Source: Catenovulum agarivorans DS-2 (GTDB lineage: Bacteria; Pseudomonadota; Gammaproteobacteria; Enterobacterales; Alteromonadaceae). Taken from it: a DNA stretch of 47,933 nucleotides. Within the stretch, counting starts at the first letter, position 1. Every line of letters starts with the position of its first letter. A program made the translations under genes and the position numbers. The DNA is taken from positions 1 through 47,933 of the forward strand of contig NZ_ARZY01000034.1 of NCBI RefSeq assembly GCF_000568405.1, written 5' to 3'. The notes beneath the pieces were generated by a model. It had not been told where the DNA came from, did not search any database, and was given only the letters and a program-made list of their open reading frames with translations. Of the stretch, positions 32,721 through 44,139 are shown piece after piece.

Positions 32721-33305
32721 TTACGCTGATTTCTTTAATGTACGTTTTCGCCTTGGCTTGCTGTATTCAAATGCAGGATAGCCAAAAACATATAGCCTTT
32801 GTTTTTTCCAGTTTTTGTATTTGCTTTCGTTCATGTCGTGGCCAAGTTCATCCCACTCAGCACGAAACTGCACGGCCGTCCGGTAGGCATGCAACTGGAG
32901 CTCAGAGGGGAAATCAGTGTAGCCTAACGAAAAAGTCTTAACCGCTGGTTTGCCATTTTTTCGATAACTAACCCAATAAAACCTTTCTATTTCGCCTCGT
33001 CTTTTGTCTAATTTTTCTCTATACCCAACCCCGTTATAACCACAACTGGTATTAGGGTTGGGTTTATGTTTGCGCTTTATCATATGAGTTGGATAAAGCG
33101 CTTTTAGTTGTTTGTTACGATTGATTGCAGCTTTTAACGCTTTTTCAATTCCACCCCATTGTTTATACGAATAAAAACCACCTAGGTCTTTTTTATTACG
33201 TATAAACCGCATTTGGCATCCTGAGTTACATGGGAAACTGATTCCGTGCGCGTCTTCATTCAGTATCACTTTCAGGTGATCTGGAATATAGTCAGGTACA
33301 GGCAC
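32721..33305 (-). CDS. AP2-like domain DNA-binding protein
   Basis: A 194-residue basic protein. I see two modules that resemble the bacterial AP2/ERF DNA-binding fold: a degenerate one at about 18-65 (GISFPCN...GGIEKALKAAINRNKQL) and a better one at about 88-155 (GVGYREK, WVSYRKNGKPAVKTFSLG, then a helix ending RAEWDEL). The C-terminal 35 residues are Lys/Arg/Trp/Tyr-rich. Bacterial AP2 proteins often belong to mobile elements or homing endonucleases, but no HNH motif is present. The start is GTG at 33305 with an in-frame stop just upstream and no strong ribosome site. Function unknown; the assignment is by pattern. Confidence 0.6.
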   Translation of the reverse strand: MPVPDYIPDHLKVILNEDAHGISFPCNSGCQMRFIRNKKDLGGFYSYKQWGGIEKALKAAINRNKQLKALYPTHMIKRKHKPNPNTSCGYNGVGYREKLDKRRGEIERFYWVSYRKNGKPAVKTFSLGYTDFPSELQLHAYRTAVQFRAEWDELGHDMNESKYKNWKKQRLYVFGYPAFEYSKPRRKRTLKKSA

Positions 33306-33479: not shown

Positions 33480-34916
33480 TTATAATTCGTTTAAATATTG
33501 AAAAAGTGACTTTAAAACCGACATTTTCGCCTGATCTTCAGAATATTGCTCAGCTAATTGTTGAATTTGGCTGGCAAAGCTATTCAGGCTCAACCCGTAA
33601 GTACCTGATTCATCAGTTAGCCTATGTTGGCAATGACTGCGCCATTTTGCTTGCTCCTCAACCGATAGTAGGTGAGGGTAGTTACGGCCTTTAAAACGAA
33701 ACCATAAAGTTGAAAAGCGTTCATCTTCAAAGTGTGGCTGAAATTCGGCTAAAGTTTCTACACGTTTTTGTTGAATTTGTTCCATAACAGCTTGGTCAGC
33801 ATCTGATGCAAAGCCATCATATAATGCAAAATCGGCATCGACAGCACCTTCAAACTCCATTGATTCATATACTTGGGTTAGCTTTTCACGAATGATTGGA
33901 TTTTGTTTAATAAAAGCTAAATTATTCAAACATTGCTGTCTGTCTATTTTCAAACGCTCAGCATTTTCTGGCAATAATGTTTTAGCTGTTGCTAGCACTG
34001 GGCACTTATTTAAGTGGATTAGCTTAATCGGTAATCGAGATTCACCTTCTGCGAATTCACTTGATGGTTTAAACATATTTTGTTTAATTTCTTCCACCGA
34101 TAAATTAACCAAAGGTTTTGGATCTAACGCGAGATTTAAAACAATAACCGCATTATTGTTAGTTGGGTGCCAAGCAATTGGACAAATCCAAGTGCAACAG
34201 CCATGTTCAGCCTTAATTTTGGAGGACACATGCATAAGTGGCGTTAAGTTATTGATGTCAATCAGCTCTGCCAACTTACGCTTATTGCGCATATCAAACA
34301 GGTATTGATACAACTTAGGCTGCTTTTGTTTAATTAAACGAGCCATCGCAATTGTTGCACGCACGTCAGAAACAGCATCATGCGCATTTTCGTGTGCTAA
34401 ACCATTCGCAACGGTTAAATTTTCTAATTTAAAACTCGGTGAACCATCTTCTTTTTTCGGCCAGTTAATACCTTCAGGCCTAAGTGCATAACAAGTTCTA
34501 ACTAAATCAATAATATCCCAACGGCTATTGCCATTTTTCCATTCGCGCTCATATGGGTTAAAAAAGTTTCGGTACGCACTATATCGAGTAACCTCGTCGT
34601 CAAATCGAATGGTATTGTAGCCAACACTACAAGTATTAGGTTTAGACATCTCTGCTAATACTTTTTGCATAAACTGATGTTCACAAATACCTTTGCGCTC
34701 GACGATCTTTGGCGTAAGCTTAGTAATTAAGCAAGCCTCTGGGTTGGGTAAATAATCCATTGGCAGTTTACAAAAAAACTCTTTTGGCTCATCAATTTCA
34801 TTTAAATCTAAATCCGTGCGAATTGCTGCAAATTGCGCAGGGTGATCTAGCTTAGGTGACGCCCCCCAAGTCTCATAATCATGCCAAAGTATGGATGGTT
34901 GGTTTTTGTTGTTCAT
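33480..34916 (-). CDS. sbcB: Exodeoxyribonuclease I (SbcB)
   Basis: 3'-5' single-stranded DNA exonuclease acting in repair and mismatch correction. The 478 residues match E. coli ExoI (475). DEDDh-type motifs are visible: HDYETWGASP (Exo I, Asp/Glu metal ligands), GYNTIRFDDEV (Exo II) and HDAVSDVRAT (Exo III, His and Asp). The SH3-like and C-terminal helical domains follow. Good GGAGA ribosome site. It lies directly left of the accessory integrase-remnant/DUF262 segment and is divergent from it. Confidence 0.96.
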   Translation of the reverse strand: MNNKNQPSILWHDYETWGASPKLDHPAQFAAIRTDLDLNEIDEPKEFFCKLPMDYLPNPEACLITKLTPKIVERKGICEHQFMQKVLAEMSKPNTCSVGYNTIRFDDEVTRYSAYRNFFNPYEREWKNGNSRWDIIDLVRTCYALRPEGINWPKKEDGSPSFKLENLTVANGLAHENAHDAVSDVRATIAMARLIKQKQPKLYQYLFDMRNKRKLAELIDINNLTPLMHVSSKIKAEHGCCTWICPIAWHPTNNNAVIVLNLALDPKPLVNLSVEEIKQNMFKPSSEFAEGESRLPIKLIHLNKCPVLATAKTLLPENAERLKIDRQQCLNNLAFIKQNPIIREKLTQVYESMEFEGAVDADFALYDGFASDADQAVMEQIQQKRVETLAEFQPHFEDERFSTLWFRFKGRNYPHLLSVEEQAKWRSHCQHRLTDESGTYGLSLNSFASQIQQLAEQYSEDQAKMSVLKSLFQYLNEL

Positions 34917-35040
34917 ATTTGTTCTCCATCCTAACTTATGTAGTTGAAATGCTTGTATAAGTTGAGTTTTTTGGTTTTCTCTTGTCTTTGTGCATCACTA
35001 GGTGCATCATAAATATACCTTTTGTGACCAGCTGGTTTTT

Positions 35041-35150
35041 ATGCCTTTAACTGATACTACATTAAGAAAAATAAATCGACATACTATACTAAACCAGAAC
35101 TCGCCGATCCAGATGGCTTATCTGTTAATGGCTCTATAAAATTCAAAGAA
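35041..35150 (+). pseudogene. Remnant of a tyrosine-recombinase integrase (N-terminal arm-binding domain)
   Basis: The bases from ATG 35041 encode MPLTDTTLRKINR, the hallmark opening of P4-type integrases (DUF4102 arm-DNA-binding domain). After a shift of reading frame near 35080-35085 the next frame reads YTKPELADPDGLSV then NGSIKF, matching the family's KLADxDGLxV...G.I.F continuation. That frame then drifts away from the family and stops at 35213. The core catalytic domain is absent. It is therefore a decayed 5' fragment, a scar of an integrated element between sbcB and the DUF262 pair. Another scar sign is the palindrome ACCAGCTGGT at 35027-35036 just before it. Confidence 0.7.
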
Positions 35151-35218
35151 TACAAAACTATAGTTATCAACAGCGTTGTGAAAGGCAAAATCAAAGTGTC
35201 TGGAGTGGGTTGACAGAG

Positions 35219-36751
35219 ATGATGTTAAAGGACTTAGTAAAGAATTCAAATGACATCGCCGTTAATAGTGTAACGGCTGCTCAGTTATTTTCTGGTGATG
35301 TAATTAATATTGCTCACGAGCCGCATAATGGCTTTAAGGCTCGATTAAACCTTCCAGTATATCAGCGCCCTTACAAATGGGCTCCTAGCGATGTAGAAGC
35401 TTTACTTGATGACCTAAAGGCTTATTTTACAGCGAATACTGAAAGCATTGATTCACAAACAAAACCGTTACTCTATTTAGGCAGCGTGGTGTTGCATCAG
35501 GTTACTAATGGTTCTGAAACTATTTTAAATATTATTGATGGTCAACAGCGTATTACGACTTTGCAGTTAATTTGCATGGCAATAGCAACTAAAAGTGGTA
35601 ACAGTTACTCTCTGCCAAATATGCTGTATGGTTCGCCAAGTAGCCATGAGCGTATTGCCAAAAACTATCAGTGGCTAATATCACAATCGCTCCCTGAAGA
35701 ATTGTTATCGCTAGAATTAGAGCGTATTAACTTCACCGTTGTGATCACACAATCTGAAGATGAAGCCTATCGTTTTTTTGAAACGCAAAATACGGGGGGC
35801 GTGAGACTATCTGGCCCACAAGTCATTAAAGCCCACCACTTACGGGCAATACCCAGTGAAATACAAAACAATTTTGCGCGTAAGTGGGAGTCATTTAACT
35901 ATTTAGATGGTGTGGTTAACAGGCTGCTTAAAGCAAGGCGCTGGCAGGCATTTGGTTTTAAACATGTGCCTTCTCACCGAGCACCTGAAGGTGTTAAAAA
36001 AGCCATTGTAAAAGAGTTTGCCGAGAATATGGGCTGCAAAAATGAAGACGTAGCCTTTAGCCGTGGCGCTCAAATAAAAAGCTTATCGGGAGCAATATCT
36101 CAGCAACTTGTTGATGGCTATTTAGCTAAGCAGCCACTGAATGCAGGTATAAATACGGTTAATTATTTAGCCTATTTTAATCAGCTATATCACACCTTGA
36201 TGGTTGAGCAGTCTCAACCTTACCTAGAGCCATTCTATTCGTTTTACAACGAGGTGGTGTTAACGGCGAATAACAGCGATTTTTTAACAGAGTTGTTTGA
36301 TATTGCTATTTTGCTATATGTCAGTGAATTTGGAACAGAGCATCTTAATGAAGCCAGCTTTTGGTTAGCTCGATGTGTCTTTTCTATTCGACTTTTCAAT
36401 GAAAAAACAGTCAGAGAAGACTCTATTTCCTCATTTGTGAAAAATTATCCATTACTTGACTGGATAACCACGGCTTATGAGCACAAGCAGTTAGTTGCAA
36501 TGTTGCAAAATTTTGAGCGAGATATAACGCCCGATAACATTGGAATATCAGATAGAGACGGCAAGCCTGCTAATGGAGTAAAGCAAAAATTCTTAAAAGG
36601 TTATGCTGAGTTTTTTAACATACTTATAGCAGAGCGCACTGGTAATCAAATAGCTCAGTCTTTTGATGCCGAATTGAAACAAGGCATAAAGAGCAAATTA
36701 GCAGAGATTAAAGAGAAAAATGTTCAAGCATTACGGGAGTGTTTTGCATGA
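35219..36751 (+). CDS. DUF262 family protein, first of a pair (GmrS-like, no HNH)
   Basis: About 510 residues. The N-terminal DUF262 (ParB/Srx-fold) domain shows YQRPYKW near 50, the nucleotide-handling DGQQR near 108-112 and the FFETQNTGGVRLSG motif near 185. The rest is helical with no DUF1524 HxxP or NLxLL motif, so a nuclease centre is not visible. In GmrSD-type type IV restriction, the DUF262 part uses NTP and the DUF1524 part cuts modified DNA. The start may be TTG 35210 or the ATGs at 35219/35222; GGAG at 35202 fits either. Its stop overlaps the start of the next gene (ATGA). Candidate defence subunit. Confidence 0.85.
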   Translation: MMLKDLVKNSNDIAVNSVTAAQLFSGDVINIAHEPHNGFKARLNLPVYQRPYKWAPSDVEALLDDLKAYFTANTESIDSQTKPLLYLGSVVLHQVTNGSETILNIIDGQQRITTLQLICMAIATKSGNSYSLPNMLYGSPSSHERIAKNYQWLISQSLPEELLSLELERINFTVVITQSEDEAYRFFETQNTGGVRLSGPQVIKAHHLRAIPSEIQNNFARKWESFNYLDGVVNRLLKARRWQAFGFKHVPSHRAPEGVKKAIVKEFAENMGCKNEDVAFSRGAQIKSLSGAISQQLVDGYLAKQPLNAGINTVNYLAYFNQLYHTLMVEQSQPYLEPFYSFYNEVVLTANNSDFLTELFDIAILLYVSEFGTEHLNEASFWLARCVFSIRLFNEKTVREDSISSFVKNYPLLDWITTAYEHKQLVAMLQNFERDITPDNIGISDRDGKPANGVKQKFLKGYAEFFNILIAERTGNQIAQSFDAELKQGIKSKLAEIKEKNVQALRECFA

Positions 36752-38778
36752 GTTTAGCTGTATCAAGCAATACTTCTAGTGTTAGTCAGGTCGAAACAAA
36801 AGTACAAACACCACAGGATTTATTAATAAACAAAATCGCGTTTGAAATCCCATCTTATCAGCGGCCCTATGTGTGGGGCGGTGAAAGCGTATTAAAGTTA
36901 TTACAGGACATAGAGCAAGCATTTATTGCCAAAGAGCACCAATATTATATTGGCACGGTACTTTCTTCTCAATTGTCGAAAAAAGCGAACAAAGATGCAT
37001 CGGTGAGCTTTGAATTGATTGATGGGCAACAGCGCATGACTACCTTAATGCTGATTGCCATTGCATTTAAAAAAGCCAATGTTGATTGTGAGCTTTCAAA
37101 CGTTGCGACATTGGCGCATTTTCCTCGTGTTACGTTTTCAATTAGAGAAATGGTACAAGGTTTATTGTGTTCATGGACGGATTTAGAGTTTACACATAAG
37201 CCTTCTGATGAAGATATTCATAAAAATGAATATACCAAGTATTTAGCCGAAGCGTTAAATACAGCAACGAGCTTTATTAAAGAAATACGCAAGGACAGGA
37301 AAAAAGGTGAAGCGCATTTAGTTAATTTTGCTAAGTACTTTTATCAGCAAGTACGCTGGGTTAATAACATTATTCCAGCTGGAACCGATTTGAATAAACT
37401 GTTCGCGACTATGAATACCAGTGGTGTGCAGCTAGAACAATCGGATATTTTAAAATCGAAGCTTTTAGGTAAGTTGAGCAAAAACCGTCATGAGTATGAT
37501 GGCTTGTGGCAAGTGTGTGAGAATCTAAAGAATTACTTTGAGCGCAATGTGAGGCGTGTTTTTGCTGCCTCTAACTGGAATGAGCTCCAAGATGTAGAGC
37601 TTGCAAGTTTTGATAAGACAAAGTTTAAGCTTGTTGAGACCAGCAAGCCTCTGGATGGTTTAGACAAAGGTTTCAATAATACTAGAGGACTAACGCTTGA
37701 AGAGATTGTTAAAGATGAATCTTTGTTAAGTAAGTCTGAGCCTAAAAATGCGACTGACAGCAATGCTAACGACTCTGATAATGAGGTGTACTGTCGCTCT
37801 ATTATTAGTTTTCCGTTGCTTTTAATTCACACGTTTAGAATTTATAACGCTCAATCTGGTAATGGAGACATTGCAAGTCGTGTTAATGGTGAGCGACTTA
37901 ATCAAGCATTTGAAAAGTTTGTGATAAATGCTTCTGAATTCGAGGTAATTAAGTTTTTAGATTGCTTATGGCAAGTACGCTACCAGTTTGATAAGTGGGT
38001 TGTGAAGTGGGTAGAAAAGGCCGAAGAATCCACGGCAGCTTTACGATTAAGTAATGTTAATTTCTCAAAGACACAAAGCAGATTAAACCGAGTCCCTACA
38101 GAAATTACAGAGCTAAGCCAACTTCAAAGCGTTCGATACTTCACTGGTGAACGAAGCGCCCAGTATTGGCTTACATCTTTTCTAGGCTGGTTAGTTAAAA
38201 ACAATACTGACGATAAAGACTTAGTATTAGCTAAGTTAGAAGATATTGATAACAAACTGTCATTAGCTTTGTTCTATGAACAGTTAAGTCAAAAGCAGGC
38301 AAGTTATAACTATCTCAAAAAGCCAGAGGTTAGTGTTGGTAATTCATATGAAATGAGTGCGTATCTAAAACAAATCAATGGTACTGGGTTTGAGCATTAT
38401 TGGTTCCAGAAATTGGAATATGTGCTTTGGAAAAATGAGCAAAATAGAGCTGATGACAAATTCAGAAAATACCGCATTAGTTCAAAGAACTCTGTTGAGC
38501 ATGTTCACCCACAACATGAAGAATACGATAAGCGGTTAGAAGATAGCTATTTGAATGCTTTTGGCAATCTTGTGTTACTGAGTCCGGGCGAAAATTCGTC
38601 CTACAGTAATCAAACGGTTGGTAAAAAACAGGAAGATTTCAAAGCCAAACCAGTATATGACTCACTCAAGTTAAAACAAATCTTTGAGCTGAAGCAAAAC
38701 GGTGAGTGGGACAAAGATATGATTAAACAGCATCAAAAAGAGATGATCTGTTTATTAGAAAAGCATTATTTTGGATGA
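36748..38778 (+). CDS. DUF262-DUF1524 protein, second of a pair (GmrSD-like)
   Basis: A 676-residue protein with an N-terminal DUF262 domain (YQRPYVW 37-43, DGQQR 92-96, FATMNTSGVQLEQ near 215). A long helical middle follows, then a C-terminal DUF1524 HNH-like nuclease domain: VEHVHPQHEEYD (HxxP), then NAFGNLVLLSPGENSSYSN. This layout matches fused GmrSD-type modification-dependent endonucleases. The start is the ATG at 36748 within the ATGA overlap, after GGGAG; an upstream ATG at 36739 is less likely. Tight coupling to a paralogue that lacks the nuclease domain suggests a hetero-complex. Role in phage defence is inference from family and context. Confidence 0.88.
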   Translation: MSLAVSSNTSSVSQVETKVQTPQDLLINKIAFEIPSYQRPYVWGGESVLKLLQDIEQAFIAKEHQYYIGTVLSSQLSKKANKDASVSFELIDGQQRMTTLMLIAIAFKKANVDCELSNVATLAHFPRVTFSIREMVQGLLCSWTDLEFTHKPSDEDIHKNEYTKYLAEALNTATSFIKEIRKDRKKGEAHLVNFAKYFYQQVRWVNNIIPAGTDLNKLFATMNTSGVQLEQSDILKSKLLGKLSKNRHEYDGLWQVCENLKNYFERNVRRVFAASNWNELQDVELASFDKTKFKLVETSKPLDGLDKGFNNTRGLTLEEIVKDESLLSKSEPKNATDSNANDSDNEVYCRSIISFPLLLIHTFRIYNAQSGNGDIASRVNGERLNQAFEKFVINASEFEVIKFLDCLWQVRYQFDKWVVKWVEKAEESTAALRLSNVNFSKTQSRLNRVPTEITELSQLQSVRYFTGERSAQYWLTSFLGWLVKNNTDDKDLVLAKLEDIDNKLSLALFYEQLSQKQASYNYLKKPEVSVGNSYEMSAYLKQINGTGFEHYWFQKLEYVLWKNEQNRADDKFRKYRISSKNSVEHVHPQHEEYDKRLEDSYLNAFGNLVLLSPGENSSYSNQTVGKKQEDFKAKPVYDSLKLKQIFELKQNGEWDKDMIKQHQKEMICLLEKHYFG

Positions 38779-38887
38779 GTGGCATTTAACCACAGCCATG
38801 AGACGCAAACGCTGCATGCTTCGACAATATTTATCCGCACATTACCATCCTGCAAACCAACTTGATTTTTGCCACTGCTAAATTATA

Positions 38888-38903
38888 CTGTATAAAAATA
38901 CAG
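38888..38903 (+). promoter_or_regulatory. LexA (SOS) box upstream of imuA
   Basis: CTGTATAAAAATACAG: perfect CTGT-N8-ACAG of the gammaproteobacterial LexA consensus, with an AT-rich centre. It is 7 bases before the imuA ATG and overlaps a TATACT -10 (38884-38889). It predicts DNA-damage induction of the imuA-imuB-dnaE2 cassette. Confidence 0.9.
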
Positions 38904-38910
38904 GTTATTT

Positions 38911-39618
38911 ATGACAAGCATTATTGAATCTTTAGAAAATAAACATTGGCTATGGCGTGGCCGAGGTCAATCTCGGCAGGCTATTGGTGAGCGATTGCCA
39001 ACTGGTTACTCTGAGCTTGATGAGAGCCTGCAAGGTGGTTTTGCCAAAACTGGCGTGCATGAAATGTTTGTTGCAACAGGCATTGGTGAGCTGCGCTTAT
39101 GTTTGGCGGCTTGCCATGATTCAGTTTCTGTTTTTATTCAACCGCCTGGCGTATTGAATGGTCAGTTGTTAGCTTACGCGGGTATTTCTCCTCAACAAGT
39201 TATTGTCGTTAAAGTACAAGATCATAAAGAAATGTTATGGGCTGCTGAGCAGTGTTGTAAAAGTGGCGCTTGCCAAAATGTATTTATATGGCCGCAAATG
39301 CTTAATCTTGCAGGCCGTTTTGAAGTGCACCATATCAAGCGTTTACAGCTTGCCTGCCAGCAGGGGCATTGCCGATTGTTTATTTTACGTCAAGATAAAC
39401 AACCGCATATCTCATTACCAGTCGAAGCCAGTTTAAGTTTAAAAGCTCATCCTAAAGGGTTGCAAGTCAAAATAAATAAACAAAAAGCAGGCTGGCCAAG
39501 CCCTTGGGTTGTGGTCAATATGTGCCAACAATGGCCAGAATTAACGACTGTTGCGGCTCAGCAGCAAGCGTTTGACAATAATATTATCCACTTTCCAGCC
39601 AAAGCTTCTGGCGGATAA
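38911..39618 (+). CDS. imuA: Translesion synthesis accessory protein ImuA
   Basis: A 235-residue RecA/SulA-like protein of the SOS mutagenesis cassette. It opens with a Trp-rich stretch and the LPTGYSELDESLQGGFAKTGVHEMF block typical of ImuA proteins, equivalent to the RecA-fold start but without an intact Walker A. It is thought to help organise the mutasome with ImuB. It is the first gene under the LexA box; imuB begins 16 bases after its stop. Confidence 0.9.
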   Translation: MTSIIESLENKHWLWRGRGQSRQAIGERLPTGYSELDESLQGGFAKTGVHEMFVATGIGELRLCLAACHDSVSVFIQPPGVLNGQLLAYAGISPQQVIVVKVQDHKEMLWAAEQCCKSGACQNVFIWPQMLNLAGRFEVHHIKRLQLACQQGHCRLFILRQDKQPHISLPVEASLSLKAHPKGLQVKINKQKAGWPSPWVVVNMCQQWPELTTVAAQQQAFDNNIIHFPAKASGG

Positions 39619-39634
39619 GCAAAAGGAAGGCAAG

Positions 39635-41068
39635 ATGTCAGCGGCTTTGTGGTTATATTTACATTTTCCAAACTTGCAGTTGGATAAGTTGCTGCTATCG
39701 GAACAAAGGCATGCAGATAACAATGCAATTGTTATTTCAAATAGTAAAGATGCCCGTATTGTGCAACTTAATACAATAGCGAAGCAGCATGGTATAAAAG
39801 CAGGCATGGGCATAGCCACTGCTTCGGCTTTATATCGACAATTACAAATATATCCTTACCAAGCGGATATAGAGCAACAAACCATTTTAGAAATCGCACA
39901 ATGGCTTTATTTAGTCACGGCTGATATCTCTTTACATTATCAACAGGGTATTTTGATTAAAGTCAGTGATATGCTCATGCTTTACCAAAGTTTAGACAAG
40001 TACTGGTTAACACTCAAAAATCATTTAGATGAGCTGGGTTACCAGTATCAATATTGTTTAGCGTATTCGCCGATTGCTGCGCGTTTGTTGGCACAAGCGG
40101 GCACTAATTTATTAACAAGCTCGGCGGATAAAATTAATTATTTGCTTGGGCAGCTTTCTCTTGAGCAAACAGATTTAACCAAAAAACAAATTGAGCAGTT
40201 AAATAGAGTTGGCATTCAGTATTTAGCTGAATTAATTAAATTGCCGCTGGCCGATTTACATAAAAGGTTTGAACACAGTTTAGTGACTTACTTAGGCCAG
40301 TTAACTGGACAGTTACAACAAGTGGTTGGATTTTATCACCCACCTGAACAATTTAAGCAATCACTCGATTTGTTGTTTGAAATATCCGATAGTCAAAAAC
40401 TATTACCTTCAATAAAAAAACTACTAGATAAGCTTGAACGCTTTTTATATTTGCGTGACAAACGCTGCCAGCAAATTCAGTTGCAATTGATTACTCGAGA
40501 AAAATCGCAGGTGCAATTAACCGTAGCTAGCAGTCAAGGTGAGTTTAAAGCAGATAAGTGGGCGAGCTTAGTTGCTTTAAAGCTTGAAAGTTGCCAACTG
40601 CCAGAGCCAGTTATTGAAATCAACTTGCAGGTTGAACGGTTATTGTCTAGCCAAGAAAATAAAGCCGATATGTTCAACCAAGCACCTGTCGGCAGTTTAT
40701 CTTTACCTGAGTTAATTTCACGTTTGCAGGCTAGGTTAGGGGACAACAACGTATTATGCGTACAGCTAAAGGACGATCATAGGCCAGAGCAAGCCAACCA
40801 ATTAACCGCCATTAAAGCAGATTTTTTTAGACACAAAACCAACGATAAACTCACAGGGTTATTAAGACCAAGTTTTTTGTTTGAGTTTCCGAAAAAGCTC
40901 ACTGAGCAAGTTACGATTCAACAAGGGCCAGAGCGAATTGTCTGCGGGTGGTGGGATAATCAAGCGGTTATTCGCGATTATTTTATAGCTCGGAGTCAGC
41001 AAGGTGTCTGGTTATGGATTTATCGTACACCCGCACAACAATGGTATTTGCATGGAATTTTTAGCTAA
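39635..41068 (+). CDS. imuB: Y-family polymerase homologue ImuB (catalytically inactive)
   Basis: A 477-residue DinB-like scaffold protein that links DnaE2 to the sliding clamp. The start at 39635 follows AAGGAAGG; the longer frame overlaps imuA. The N-terminus reads LWLYLHFPNLQLDKLL where active Y-family polymerases have the DxD-type catalytic motif, so the acidic residues are missing, as known for ImuB. Helix-hairpin-helix (LNRVGIQYLAEL near 195) and little-finger regions follow, and the C-terminus ends WYLHGIFS. Its stop and the dnaE2 start share one base (TAATG). Confidence 0.92.
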   Translation: MSAALWLYLHFPNLQLDKLLLSEQRHADNNAIVISNSKDARIVQLNTIAKQHGIKAGMGIATASALYRQLQIYPYQADIEQQTILEIAQWLYLVTADISLHYQQGILIKVSDMLMLYQSLDKYWLTLKNHLDELGYQYQYCLAYSPIAARLLAQAGTNLLTSSADKINYLLGQLSLEQTDLTKKQIEQLNRVGIQYLAELIKLPLADLHKRFEHSLVTYLGQLTGQLQQVVGFYHPPEQFKQSLDLLFEISDSQKLLPSIKKLLDKLERFLYLRDKRCQQIQLQLITREKSQVQLTVASSQGEFKADKWASLVALKLESCQLPEPVIEINLQVERLLSSQENKADMFNQAPVGSLSLPELISRLQARLGDNNVLCVQLKDDHRPEQANQLTAIKADFFRHKTNDKLTGLLRPSFLFEFPKKLTEQVTIQQGPERIVCGWWDNQAVIRDYFIARSQQGVWLWIYRTPAQQWYLHGIFS

Positions 41069-44000
41069 TGGAATATGCAGAGCTTTTTTGCCAAAGCAAC
41101 TTTTCTTTTTTACAAGGTGCATCTCACCCAGAGGAGCTGGTCAGTCGCGCCAATTTTTTAAACTACTCAGCCATCGCAATAACAGATGAGTGCTCTGTCG
41201 CTGGGGTTGTACGTGCGTACACAGCAATTAAAGCGCAAAAACTAGCTATAAAATTGATTATAGGCAGTTTATTTAAACTAGATGCAGGTTTGTCGATAGT
41301 TGCCTTGTGTCCAAATCATCAAGCCTATAGCGAACTTTGTCGTATTATCAGTAACGCGAGGAGGCGTAGCGACAAAGGCCAATACCAGTTAGAGCAGTGG
41401 GATTTAATGTCGCTCAAACATTGTTTAATTCTGTGGTTACCACAAGGAAGTCACCAAGATAATACCTGGGGGCGTTGGCTACAAAAATACCATAATGGTC
41501 GATTATATATTGGCATACAAAGGCATTTAACCCACCAAGAAAATAGCTATATTAGCCGTTGCCAGCAGTTAGCGGATGAACTTGAGTTAAGCATAGCAGC
41601 AGTAGGGGGCGTATTAATGCATTGCCCAACGCGTTTATCACTGCAACACACTGTGACGGCAATTCGTTTAGGTACAAGTATAGATAAGTTAGGTTATCAA
41701 GCATTGAGTAATGCTGAGTGTAGTTTGCGTTCGATTGATAAACTAAACAAATTGTTTAAACCCCAGTGGTTACAAACCAGCCATCATATTGCAGAACAAT
41801 GCCAATTTAATTTAGCTGAATTAAGTTACCAATACCCAGCCGAATTAGTTCCCGAAGGTAAAAGTGCTATGGGGTATTTACGCGAATTAGTTGAGCAGGG
41901 CAAAGCTCAACGTTTTCCAGATGGTGTGCCAGAGAATGTGCAACAAACGATAGATAAAGAACTTCAATTAATTGATGAGCTCAATTATCCATATTATTTT
42001 TTAACCATTCATGACATTGTTAGTTTTGCGCAGCAGCAGGGCATTTTGTATCAAGGGCGCGGTTCAGCGGCCAATTCTGTTGTGTGTTATTGCTTGCAAA
42101 TCACCTCGGTTGATCCAAGGCAAATAGCTGTATTATTTGAGCGTTTTATCAGAAAAGAACGCAACGAACCGCCAGATATTGATGTAGATTTTGAACACGA
42201 ACGCCGTGAAGAAATCATTCAATATATCTATCAAAAATATGGTCGACGCCGCACAGCTATTGCAGCAACAGTGATCACCTATAGGTTAAAAAGCGCCATT
42301 CGAGAAGTGGGCAAAGCTTTAGGTATTCATGTTACTCAATTAGAGTATTTTATCAAAAACATGAATCGACGAGACAAAGGATTGAACTGGCAAAGCCAAC
42401 TGGTTGAGTTAGGTTTAACGCCGGAGTCAGTTAAAGGTCAGCAGTTTATCAATTTGGTGAATGAAATTTTGCGTTTTCCGCGGCATTTATCCCAGCATGT
42501 TGGCGGCTTTGTTATATCCGCTGGGCCTTTATATGAACTTGTGCCAGTTGAAAATGCATCTATGCCTGACAGAACCGTTATTCAATGGGATAAAGATGAT
42601 TTAGAAAGTTTAGGTTTATTAAAAGTTGATGTATTAGCACTAGGAATGTTGAGTGCCATTCGCAAATGTTTTTCTATGATAGCAGCCTCAGAACAACGGC
42701 AATTAAGCATAGCCGATATCACCAGTATGCAAGATGATGCAAATGTTTATCGCATGATCCAACAAGCTGACACTGTTGGCGTATTTCAAATAGAATCACG
42801 AGCACAAATGAGCATGCTACCTAGGCTTAGACCTGCCAATTATTATGATCTAGTGATTCAAATTGCCATTGTTAGACCTGGGCCGATTCAAGGCGATATG
42901 GTGCACCCGTTTTTAAAACGGCGCAAAGGTGAAGAGAAAATTGAATACCCATCCAAAGAGGTTGAACAAGTTTTAGCGCGTACTTTAGGTGTGCCGATTT
43001 TCCAAGAGCAAGTGATTAAACTAGCTATGGTTGCGGCTGGTTTTTCTGGCGGCGAAGCCGACCAACTACGCCGCGCTATGGCCAGTTGGAAAAAGTCTGG
43101 CGAGCTGATGAAATTTAAAAGCAAACTGATAGATGGCATGCGCAGCCGTGGTTATCAAGCAGAATTTGCCAACAGGTTATTTGAGCAAATTTGTGGGTTT
43201 GGTGAATATGGTTTTCCGGAAAGCCATTCAGCATCTTTTGCTGTGCTTGCGTATGTATCTGCTTGGCTGAAATATTATTATCCAGCTGAATTTTATACCG
43301 CCATTTTAAACAGTTTACCTATGGGGTTTTATAGCGCCTCGCAGCTAGTGCAAGATGCTAAAAGACACAAAATTACAGTTTTGCCTGTCTGTATTAATCA
43401 ATCTGATGCACAGCACAAAGTGGTTATTCAAGGTGCGCAAAAAAGCATGCGTTTAGGTTTTAACTTAGTAAAAGGCTTAACCCAAATAACTGCTGAAAAG
43501 CTAGTATTAAATCGACCGGTGCACGGCTATCAATCTATTGAACAAGTCAAACAAGTAATTGGCAACAAGCGCGATATGGAATTACTCGCCAGTGCCAATG
43601 CATTTGCTCAAATTGCGGATAATCGATACCAAAGCCGTTGGCAAATTATGAATAACCAAAGTGATTTGCCGTTATTTAGCCAATTACACGAACCCGAGCA
43701 AGGCTATTTATTTAAACCAAATGCATTAGATACCTTAACTGAAGATTACGCAGCTTTAGGCCTAAGCTTAGATTTACACCCAATTCAGCTATTAGAGCAA
43801 CAAGATAAACTTGGTAAATTTACCCGTATGGCTGAGCTCACGGAAAAAACACATCAATCATTAGTGACAGTTGTTGGCGTCGTTACAGGAAAACAAGCAC
43901 CAGGCACAGCATCTGGCGTAACGTTTATGACGCTTGAAGATGACACTGGTAATATCAATGTTGTGGTTTGGTCAGGAACAGCACGAGCGCAAAAACAAGC

Positions 44001-44139
44001 TTATCTAACCGCCAAAATTCTTAAAGTAAAAGGCATAGTTGAAAAAGCCGATAATGTTGTCCATGTTATTGCCGGTAAACTTGAAGACCTCACGCCTTTG
44101 TTAGGAGAGATAAAAACTCAGTCGCGGGAATTTCATTAA
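41068..44139 (+). CDS. dnaE2: Error-prone DNA polymerase DnaE2 (ImuC)
   Basis: C-family polymerase alpha subunit for mutagenic lesion bypass. The 1023-residue length matches DnaE2 (replicative DnaE is about 1160). An N-terminal PHP domain opens YAELFCQSNFSFLQGASHPEEL. The palm has catalytic Asp372 and Asp374 in PPDIDVDFEHERRE. The finger segment GRGSAANSVVCYCL, the conserved RPGPIQGDMVHPF and a C-terminal OB fold (about 925-1000) follow. The C-terminal clamp- and tau-binding region is lacking, as expected. Translationally coupled to imuB. Confidence 0.96.
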   Translation: MEYAELFCQSNFSFLQGASHPEELVSRANFLNYSAIAITDECSVAGVVRAYTAIKAQKLAIKLIIGSLFKLDAGLSIVALCPNHQAYSELCRIISNARRRSDKGQYQLEQWDLMSLKHCLILWLPQGSHQDNTWGRWLQKYHNGRLYIGIQRHLTHQENSYISRCQQLADELELSIAAVGGVLMHCPTRLSLQHTVTAIRLGTSIDKLGYQALSNAECSLRSIDKLNKLFKPQWLQTSHHIAEQCQFNLAELSYQYPAELVPEGKSAMGYLRELVEQGKAQRFPDGVPENVQQTIDKELQLIDELNYPYYFLTIHDIVSFAQQQGILYQGRGSAANSVVCYCLQITSVDPRQIAVLFERFIRKERNEPPDIDVDFEHERREEIIQYIYQKYGRRRTAIAATVITYRLKSAIREVGKALGIHVTQLEYFIKNMNRRDKGLNWQSQLVELGLTPESVKGQQFINLVNEILRFPRHLSQHVGGFVISAGPLYELVPVENASMPDRTVIQWDKDDLESLGLLKVDVLALGMLSAIRKCFSMIAASEQRQLSIADITSMQDDANVYRMIQQADTVGVFQIESRAQMSMLPRLRPANYYDLVIQIAIVRPGPIQGDMVHPFLKRRKGEEKIEYPSKEVEQVLARTLGVPIFQEQVIKLAMVAAGFSGGEADQLRRAMASWKKSGELMKFKSKLIDGMRSRGYQAEFANRLFEQICGFGEYGFPESHSASFAVLAYVSAWLKYYYPAEFYTAILNSLPMGFYSASQLVQDAKRHKITVLPVCINQSDAQHKVVIQGAQKSMRLGFNLVKGLTQITAEKLVLNRPVHGYQSIEQVKQVIGNKRDMELLASANAFAQIADNRYQSRWQIMNNQSDLPLFSQLHEPEQGYLFKPNALDTLTEDYAALGLSLDLHPIQLLEQQDKLGKFTRMAELTEKTHQSLVTVVGVVTGKQAPGTASGVTFMTLEDDTGNINVVVWSGTARAQKQAYLTAKILKVKGIVEKADNVVHVIAGKLEDLTPLLGEIKTQSREFH

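What the first reader, a model, noticed from the sequence alone, without database searches (positions are those of the whole stretch)
35041..38778. Coupled pair of DUF262 genes next to an integrase scar: candidate two-component modification-dependent restriction system
Two DUF262 proteins overlap by ATGA. The first has YQRP and DGQQR motifs but no DUF1524/HNH end; the second has DUF262 plus an HxxP...NLVLL DUF1524 end. GmrSD-type enzymes (type IV restriction of glucosylated or otherwise modified phage DNA) usually come as a fused or S+D pair; a DUF262-only partner coupled to a complete DUF262-DUF1524 protein is a different architecture. The pair sits between housekeeping sbcB and an SOS cassette, right after a decayed integrase, as expected of a mobile defence locus. 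Defence function is inference.
Basis: partly seen in the sequence, partly recalled or inferred. Interest (0 to 1): 0.78.

Follow-up and report, generated by a model that had tools for sequence, protein, structure and literature searches.

The report
TgvAB-type restriction pair, decayed island remnant
Two neighbouring genes in a marine bacterium look like an intact copy of a recently described two-protein system that cuts phage DNA carrying chemical modifications, left behind after the mobile island and type I restriction genes around it decayed; the kind of system is already known.

Summary
Two DUF262 genes overlap by ATGA; gene 1 (35219-36751) has no DUF1524, gene 2 (36748-38778) has DUF262 plus a DUF1524 nuclease end. 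The 'different architecture' is published, though: it is that of TgvAB (VC1767/VC1766) of Vibrio cholerae VPI-2, a two-protein type IV system against T-even phages (PMC11411939, 2024), with GrwAB a second two-protein case (PMC12137116). Of the 80 best gene-1 relatives kept from a species-genome scan, 78 are directly followed by a gene-2 relative; the other two end at a contig end. In 26 of 80 the order is hsdM-hsdS-A-B-hsdR, as in VPI-2, 12 of them closely spaced. The scar before the pair is double: the 5' end of an integrase that is intact in a same-genus relative, then the last ~24 codons of an hsdS gene. So the pair probably came inside a type I cluster on an integrase island that then decayed; the genome has no N6_Mtase match. 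dN/dS against its nearest relative is 0.14-0.21. New member of a known kind. Phage activity and direct alignment to VC1767/VC1766 are untested.

The parts
35041..35136 (+). remnant of the 5' end of a tyrosine integrase gene (frame broken, truncated)
   Evidence: DNA 34966-35122 aligns to G138 (L135), score 155 against shuffle max 32; G138 carries an intact integrase there, Arm-DNA-bind_3 E 3.5e-19, Phage_integrase E 8e-19. The last bases, 35123-35136, are placed by eye.
35139..35213 (+). last ~24 codons and stop of a type I specificity gene (hsdS), following the integrase remnant
   Evidence: Protein local alignment scores 73-74 to three HsdS C-termini; 500 shuffles each, maxima 46, 49 and 39. 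DNA 35143-35249, which includes the start of gene 1, matches the hsdS end and gene start of Cognaticolwellia aestuarii, score 73 against shuffle max 30. Too short to be found by tblastn with pLAO4 HsdS at E 1e-4.
35219..36751 (+). gene 1, TgvA-like: DUF262 (GmrSD_N) plus DUF7834, no nuclease domain
   Evidence: Pfam; YQR, DGQQR and N191 in 79 of 79 aligned rows
36748..38778 (+). gene 2, TgvB-like: DUF262 (GmrSD_N) plus DUF1524 (GmrSD_C) His-Me nuclease
   Evidence: Pfam; R96, H585, N607, N616 in 79 of 79 aligned rows

Best explanation
The pair is a TgvAB-type two-protein type IV (modification-dependent) restriction system. Gene 2 is the effector: its DUF262 domain binds and hydrolyses NTP and its C-terminal DUF1524 His-Me finger cuts DNA. 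Gene 1 is an obligate, nuclease-less partner with its own DUF262 NTPase site and a DUF7834 domain. The two are co-translated and probably act as a complex that recognises hypermodified (for example glucosylated) phage DNA and then licenses cleavage by gene 2. Shown here: domains, motifs, coupling, co-inheritance, kinship with pairs inside hsdM-hsdS-A-B-hsdR clusters, the integrase-hsdS scar, purifying selection. Inferred from the published TgvAB work: need for both proteins, NTP use, target. Pure inference: complex formation. History, inferred from the scar: the pair arrived inside a type I cluster on an integrase island; a deletion joined the integrase start to the hsdS end and the flanking restriction genes were lost.
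For: Domains. Gene-1 relative directly followed by a gene-2 relative in 78 of 80 loci, the other 2 at contig ends. hsdM-hsdS-A-B-hsdR order in 26 of 80, with both gaps to the pair under 500 bases in 12 of these, also on E. coli plasmid pLAO4: the VC1769-1765 order given in PMC11411939. In 6 of 79 gene-2 rows the aligned catalytic residues stand at exactly H571 and N602, the numbers mutated in V. cholerae TgvB; all six are among the 12. Distances of gene 1 and gene 2 correlate at 0.96 (79 loci, 999 permutations, max 0.23), and at 0.98 against 0.83-0.86 with HsdM/HsdR in the 26 loci. Both fold models match SspE and DndI best. dN/dS 0.14-0.21. Scar. No N6_Mtase match in the genome.
Against: VC1767/VC1766 themselves were not held under a name, so no direct alignment was made, and the H571/N602 agreement depends on the chosen start codons. 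Apart from the nearest pair (87% and 85%), identity to the relatives in the first alignments is only 36-39% (gene 1) and 45-48% (gene 2). The type I cluster is gone here, so context rests on a ~24-codon hsdS remnant and on relatives; 48 of 80 relatives show no such cluster by the rule, and in 14 of the 26 that do, a gap to hsdS or hsdR is 500 bases or more. PADLOC (2023, older than TgvAB) names neither protein TgvA/B. Promoter-like sites were not above shuffles. No activity was tested.
Confidence: 0.82

Rival explanations
1. The pair senses DNA phosphorothioation, as SspE and DndI do, rather than modified phage bases.
For: Both fold models match SspE (6jiv, 7drs, 7drr) and DndI (9jfl) best. 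DndI is DUF262-DUF1524 with ATPase and nickase activity (PMC11662687, passages).
Against: SspE and DndI work with phosphorothioation genes of the host; the own genome has no dndC (TIGR03183) match at E 0.001, though no control genome passed that family's cut-off either, and ssp and other dnd genes were not searched. SspE and DndI are described as single proteins.
Confidence: 0.07
2. The pair is a decaying leftover without function, as its island and type I cluster are broken.
For: Integrase and hsdS are truncated remnants; no hsdR is found in the window (tblastn with pLAO4 HsdR, E 1e-4); 7 of 7 other genus members lack the pair.
Against: Both reading frames are full length with all motifs; dN/dS against the relative is 0.14-0.21, although that covers the whole time since their split and not only the time after the deletion.
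Confidence: 0.08
3. A GrwAB-type system.
For: Also two DUF262 proteins, both needed, one with DUF1524 (PMC12137116, passages).
Against: [quoted passage not shown] Here the order is reversed and gene 1 has DUF262 and DUF7834.
Confidence: 0.03

Closest known systems
TgvAB of V. cholerae VPI-2 (VC1767/VC1766; PMC11411939)
   Same: Order (DUF262-only first, DUF262-DUF1524 second), QR, DGQQR and FxxxN motifs, H...N...N nuclease end with the same H-to-N spacing (31), and relatives embedded between hsdS and hsdR
   Different: Here the type I cluster is lost apart from an hsdS tail; the sequence was not compared directly; activity untested
GrwAB of WASA V. cholerae (PMC12137116)
   Same: Two-protein GmrSD-like system, two DUF262 domains, one DUF1524
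   Different: Reversed gene order, partner with a longer multi-domain C-terminus
Single-chain GmrSD, BrxU, SspE, DndI
   Same: Gene 2 has their domain layout; fold matches to DndI, SspE and BrxU
   Different: They are described as acting without a DUF262-only partner (PMC12137116, PMC12409362, passages)

Membership tests
TgvAB-type two-protein type IV restriction | First protein has DUF262 and no DUF1524 | tested here: met
   all 79 gene-1 rows, the window's included, match GmrSD_N and DUF7834 and none matches GmrSD_C
TgvAB-type two-protein type IV restriction | Second protein has DUF262 plus DUF1524 | tested here: met
TgvAB-type two-protein type IV restriction | Genes adjacent, A before B | tested here: met
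   ATGA overlap; 78 of 80 related loci, 2 at contig ends
[quoted passage not shown] H...N...N/H nuclease motif in B | tested here: met
   H585 and N616 spaced 31 as TgvB H571 and N602
TgvAB-type two-protein type IV restriction | Embedded between hsdS and hsdR (feature of the VPI-2 locus, not of all homologues) | tested here: inconclusive
   hsdS 3' remnant upstream; no hsdR in the window; 26 of 80 relatives have the order, 12 closely spaced
TgvAB-type two-protein type IV restriction | Sequence homology to VC1767/VC1766 | not tested
   Those proteins were not held under a name; 227 unnamed Vibrio genomes were searched with the V. thalassae relative and no V. cholerae copy was identified
TgvAB-type two-protein type IV restriction | Both proteins needed; restricts phages with sugar-modified hydroxymethylcytosine | not testable with these tools
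   Needs phage assays
GrwAB | DUF262-DUF1524 gene first, partner second with extended C-terminus | tested here: not met
   Gene order reversed; gene 1 is 510 aa with DUF7834 after DUF262
Single-chain GmrSD / BrxU | Encoded without a DUF262-only partner | tested here: not met
   A coupled DUF262-only gene is present here and in 78 of 80 relatives; whether gene 2 acts alone was not tested
Dnd/Ssp phosphorothioate-dependent systems | Host phosphorothioation genes | tested here: inconclusive
   No TIGR03183 (dndC) match in the own genome; none of the 14 control genomes passed its cut-off; other dnd and ssp genes not searched

The most novel reading that the evidence does not exclude
DUF7834 is the part that lets gene 1 act as the recognition subunit: a hetero-oligomer in which two DUF262 NTPases, one without a nuclease, jointly read a DNA modification before the single nuclease is released, with the partner setting which modification is seen. 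The stripped locus would show that this works without the type I system that often surrounds it.
Probability: 0.25. Interest if true: 0.55.

Novelty: new member of a known kind. Interest (0 to 1): 0.3.

Why it matters
It adds a free-standing member of a young family whose open question is why the nuclease protein needs a DUF262-only partner (stated as unclear in PMC11411939). The family alignments give an invariant residue of the partner outside DUF262 (R391, 79 of 79 rows) that can be tested. The scar shows a pair that outlived the type I cluster it probably came in, so it can act, if it acts, without it; 1,341 tgvAB hits against 79 five-gene hits in PMC11411939 already implied this.

Tried and rejected
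'New architecture': rejected after TgvAB and GrwAB were found. 'Integrase-only scar': replaced by an integrase 5' end followed by an hsdS 3' end. 'Gene 1 hides a nuclease': no nuclease family in any of 79 rows, and the profile comparison of the two genes aligns only about the first 238 columns, the DUF262 part. Close relatives in viral contigs: none found. Phage records: one short DUF262 match. Direct or inverted repeats shared by the two flanks (34900-35240, 38740-38960) that could mark an island's ends: the longest are 8 and 9 bases, shuffled direct mean 8.2, max 11; one 13-base pair inside 38758-38925 taken as chance. Direct comparison with VC1767/VC1766: not possible by name. Complex prediction: not tried, the tool takes one protein. 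Paper searches.

Full report
What is there. Gene 1 (ATG 35219 or 35222 to TGA 36751) and gene 2 (ATG 36748 to TGA 38778) overlap by ATGA on the + strand. Gene 1 is GmrSD_N (DUF262) plus DUF7834, with no GmrSD_C. Gene 2 is GmrSD_N plus GmrSD_C (DUF1524). The best PADLOC hits are HEC-06, Orf5 and SspE models; for gene 1 (best 25 of 34 shown) their best stretches lie within residues 40-228. NCBIfam gives nothing. In the own genome (4.57 Mb, 143 contigs) these two are the only GmrSD_N matches at E <= 0.001.

Literature. TgvA (VC1767: DUF262) and TgvB (VC1766: DUF262-DUF1524) of V. cholerae VPI-2 have this architecture. They lie between hsdS and hsdR, need each other, lose activity when DGQQR of either protein or H571 or N602 of TgvB is changed, and restrict Tevenvirinae (PMC11411939: abstract, passages and sections 5, 9 and 10 read). 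Loss of glucosylation lets T2/T4 escape (Gomez and Waters, seen only as cited in PMC11411939 and PMC12409362). GrwAB is a second two-protein system with the other gene order (PMC12137116 and PMC12409362, passages). Machnicka et al. had noted that DUF262 proteins tend to neighbour GmrSD homologues and that these co-localise with type I loci (PMC4619093, passages). DUF7834 occurs in no paper of the library.

Relatives in the family. In 196 genomes, the own one included, 29 match gene 1 at E <= 0.001; five match over most of its length, the rest mainly over the DUF262 part. I fetched 10 of the 28 others, the ten with the best gene-2 matches. All 10 have a gene-1-like frame followed by a gene-2-like frame; in one of them (L042) the first ~60 residues of gene 2 lie in another frame. 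The other 18 were not examined for pairing.

Relatives elsewhere. In the collection of one genome for each of 84,980 species, 262 stretches encode a relative of the gene-1 alignment, and the best 80 were kept. Of these, 78 are directly followed by gene 2 and 2 end at the contig end. They were chosen by DUF262 patterns and score, so they are no random sample. Full-size frames in the order hsdM-hsdS-A-B-hsdR on one strand are found in 26 of 80, partial sets in 6, none in 48. Of the 26, 12 have both gaps to the pair under 500 bases; in the other 14 a gap is 500 bases to about 4 kb. The 48 include loci with fragments (L046, L076) or with hsd frames on the other strand (L101, L109), and some cut by contig ends; only type I proteins like those of pLAO4 were sought. 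E. coli plasmid pLAO4 has the five-gene order, with 590 bases between hsdS and gene A.

Fingerprint. Aligned catalytic residues fall at exactly H571 and N602 in 6 of 79 gene-2 proteins, from Vibrio thalassae, Shewanella marinintestina, Aliivibrio fischeri and three Pseudoalteromonas; all six are among the 12 closely spaced five-gene loci. These are the residue numbers mutated in V. cholerae TgvB. The numbering rests on the first possible start codon. The paper names Shewanella, Acinetobacter and Pseudoalteromonas as carriers of the five-gene cluster; all three genera are among the 26. This is indirect, because the V. cholerae proteins were not held under a name; 40 of 227 unnamed Vibrio genomes match the V. 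thalassae gene-1 relative, mostly over DUF262, and none could be told to be V. cholerae.

Conservation. YQR, DGQQR and N191 of gene 1, and R96, H585, N607 and N616 of gene 2, are unchanged in 79 of 79 rows (the two contig-end loci were left out and the window added). Distances of the two genes correlate at 0.96 (Spearman 0.95; 999 permutations, max 0.23). In the 26 five-gene loci the value is 0.98, against 0.83-0.86 with HsdM or HsdR and 0.33 with HsdS. The correlation also carries shared descent, and HsdM and HsdR are less diverged (mean distance 0.28 and 0.27 against 0.54 and 0.53).

Structure. Models reach mean pLDDT 88.9 (gene 1) and 87.9 (gene 2). Best solved matches for gene 1 are SspE and then DndI, for gene 2 DndI and then SspE; BrxU is weaker for both, and for gene 1 it misses E 0.001. 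TM-scores are low (0.40 or less), so domains match and not the whole arrangement. Profile comparison of the two families aligns the DUF262 part alone.

The scar. G138, a same-genus genome, has an intact integrase (383-393 aa by start codon) beginning at the same place beside sbcB; its contig ends soon after, so the far end is not seen. The other six genus members show no such match beyond the sbcB end. The window keeps the integrase's 5' end in a broken frame (34966-35122 aligned), then runs into the last ~24 codons of an hsdS gene (35139-35213). In Cognaticolwellia aestuarii, which carries the nearest pair (87% and 85%), a longer hsdS end stands before the pair and a 115-aa hsdR start after it. 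In the window, similarity to that relative ends near the end of gene 2, and tblastn with pLAO4 HsdM, HsdS and HsdR finds nothing at E 1e-4. The own genome has no N6_Mtase match, while 13 of 14 control genomes do. Of 7 other genus members, 7 lack the pair. A deletion that joined the integrase start to the hsdS end is the simplest reading; its steps and order are inferred.

State of the pair. dN/dS to the relative is 0.138 and 0.157 for gene 1 and 0.135 and 0.207 for gene 2 by two methods, so the proteins were held by selection for at least part of the time since their split.

Verdict. A free-standing TgvAB-type pair. It has the architecture, order and motifs of that family; the type I setting survives only as an hsdS tail, and direct alignment with VC1767/VC1766 and phage activity were not tested.

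Noticed in passing
window 38888-38903: CTGTATAAAAATACAG, a CTGT-N8-ACAG LexA-type box (motif recalled), just before imuA (38911); one match in the window, 0.55 expected, and 45 of 100 shuffles have at least one, so only its place speaks for it.
   Followed up: partly
window 38911-44139: imuA-imuB-dnaE2 cassette (imuA named by position). The imuA homologues found in 5 of 7 other genus members are only 31-45% identical and lie on other contigs or more than 270 kb from sbcB, while sbcB is 64-92% identical; the cassette may itself be acquired.
   Followed up: partly
window 32721-33305: 194-aa protein between the gpx-like gene and sbcB, 63-95% identical in all seven other genus members, with no Pfam or PHROGs match.
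   Followed up: no
L033 2442-18711: The relative's locus in Cognaticolwellia aestuarii also holds a Fic protein, a WYL-domain protein, AAA fragments, a single DUF262 protein and an integrase; it looks like a mobile defence island.
   Followed up: partly
L044 (Klebsiella pneumoniae plasmid CP052282.1): A distant DUF262 pair; 851 of the 907 plasmid records that match gene 1 are Klebsiella. Pairing was seen in the one Klebsiella record opened.
   Followed up: partly
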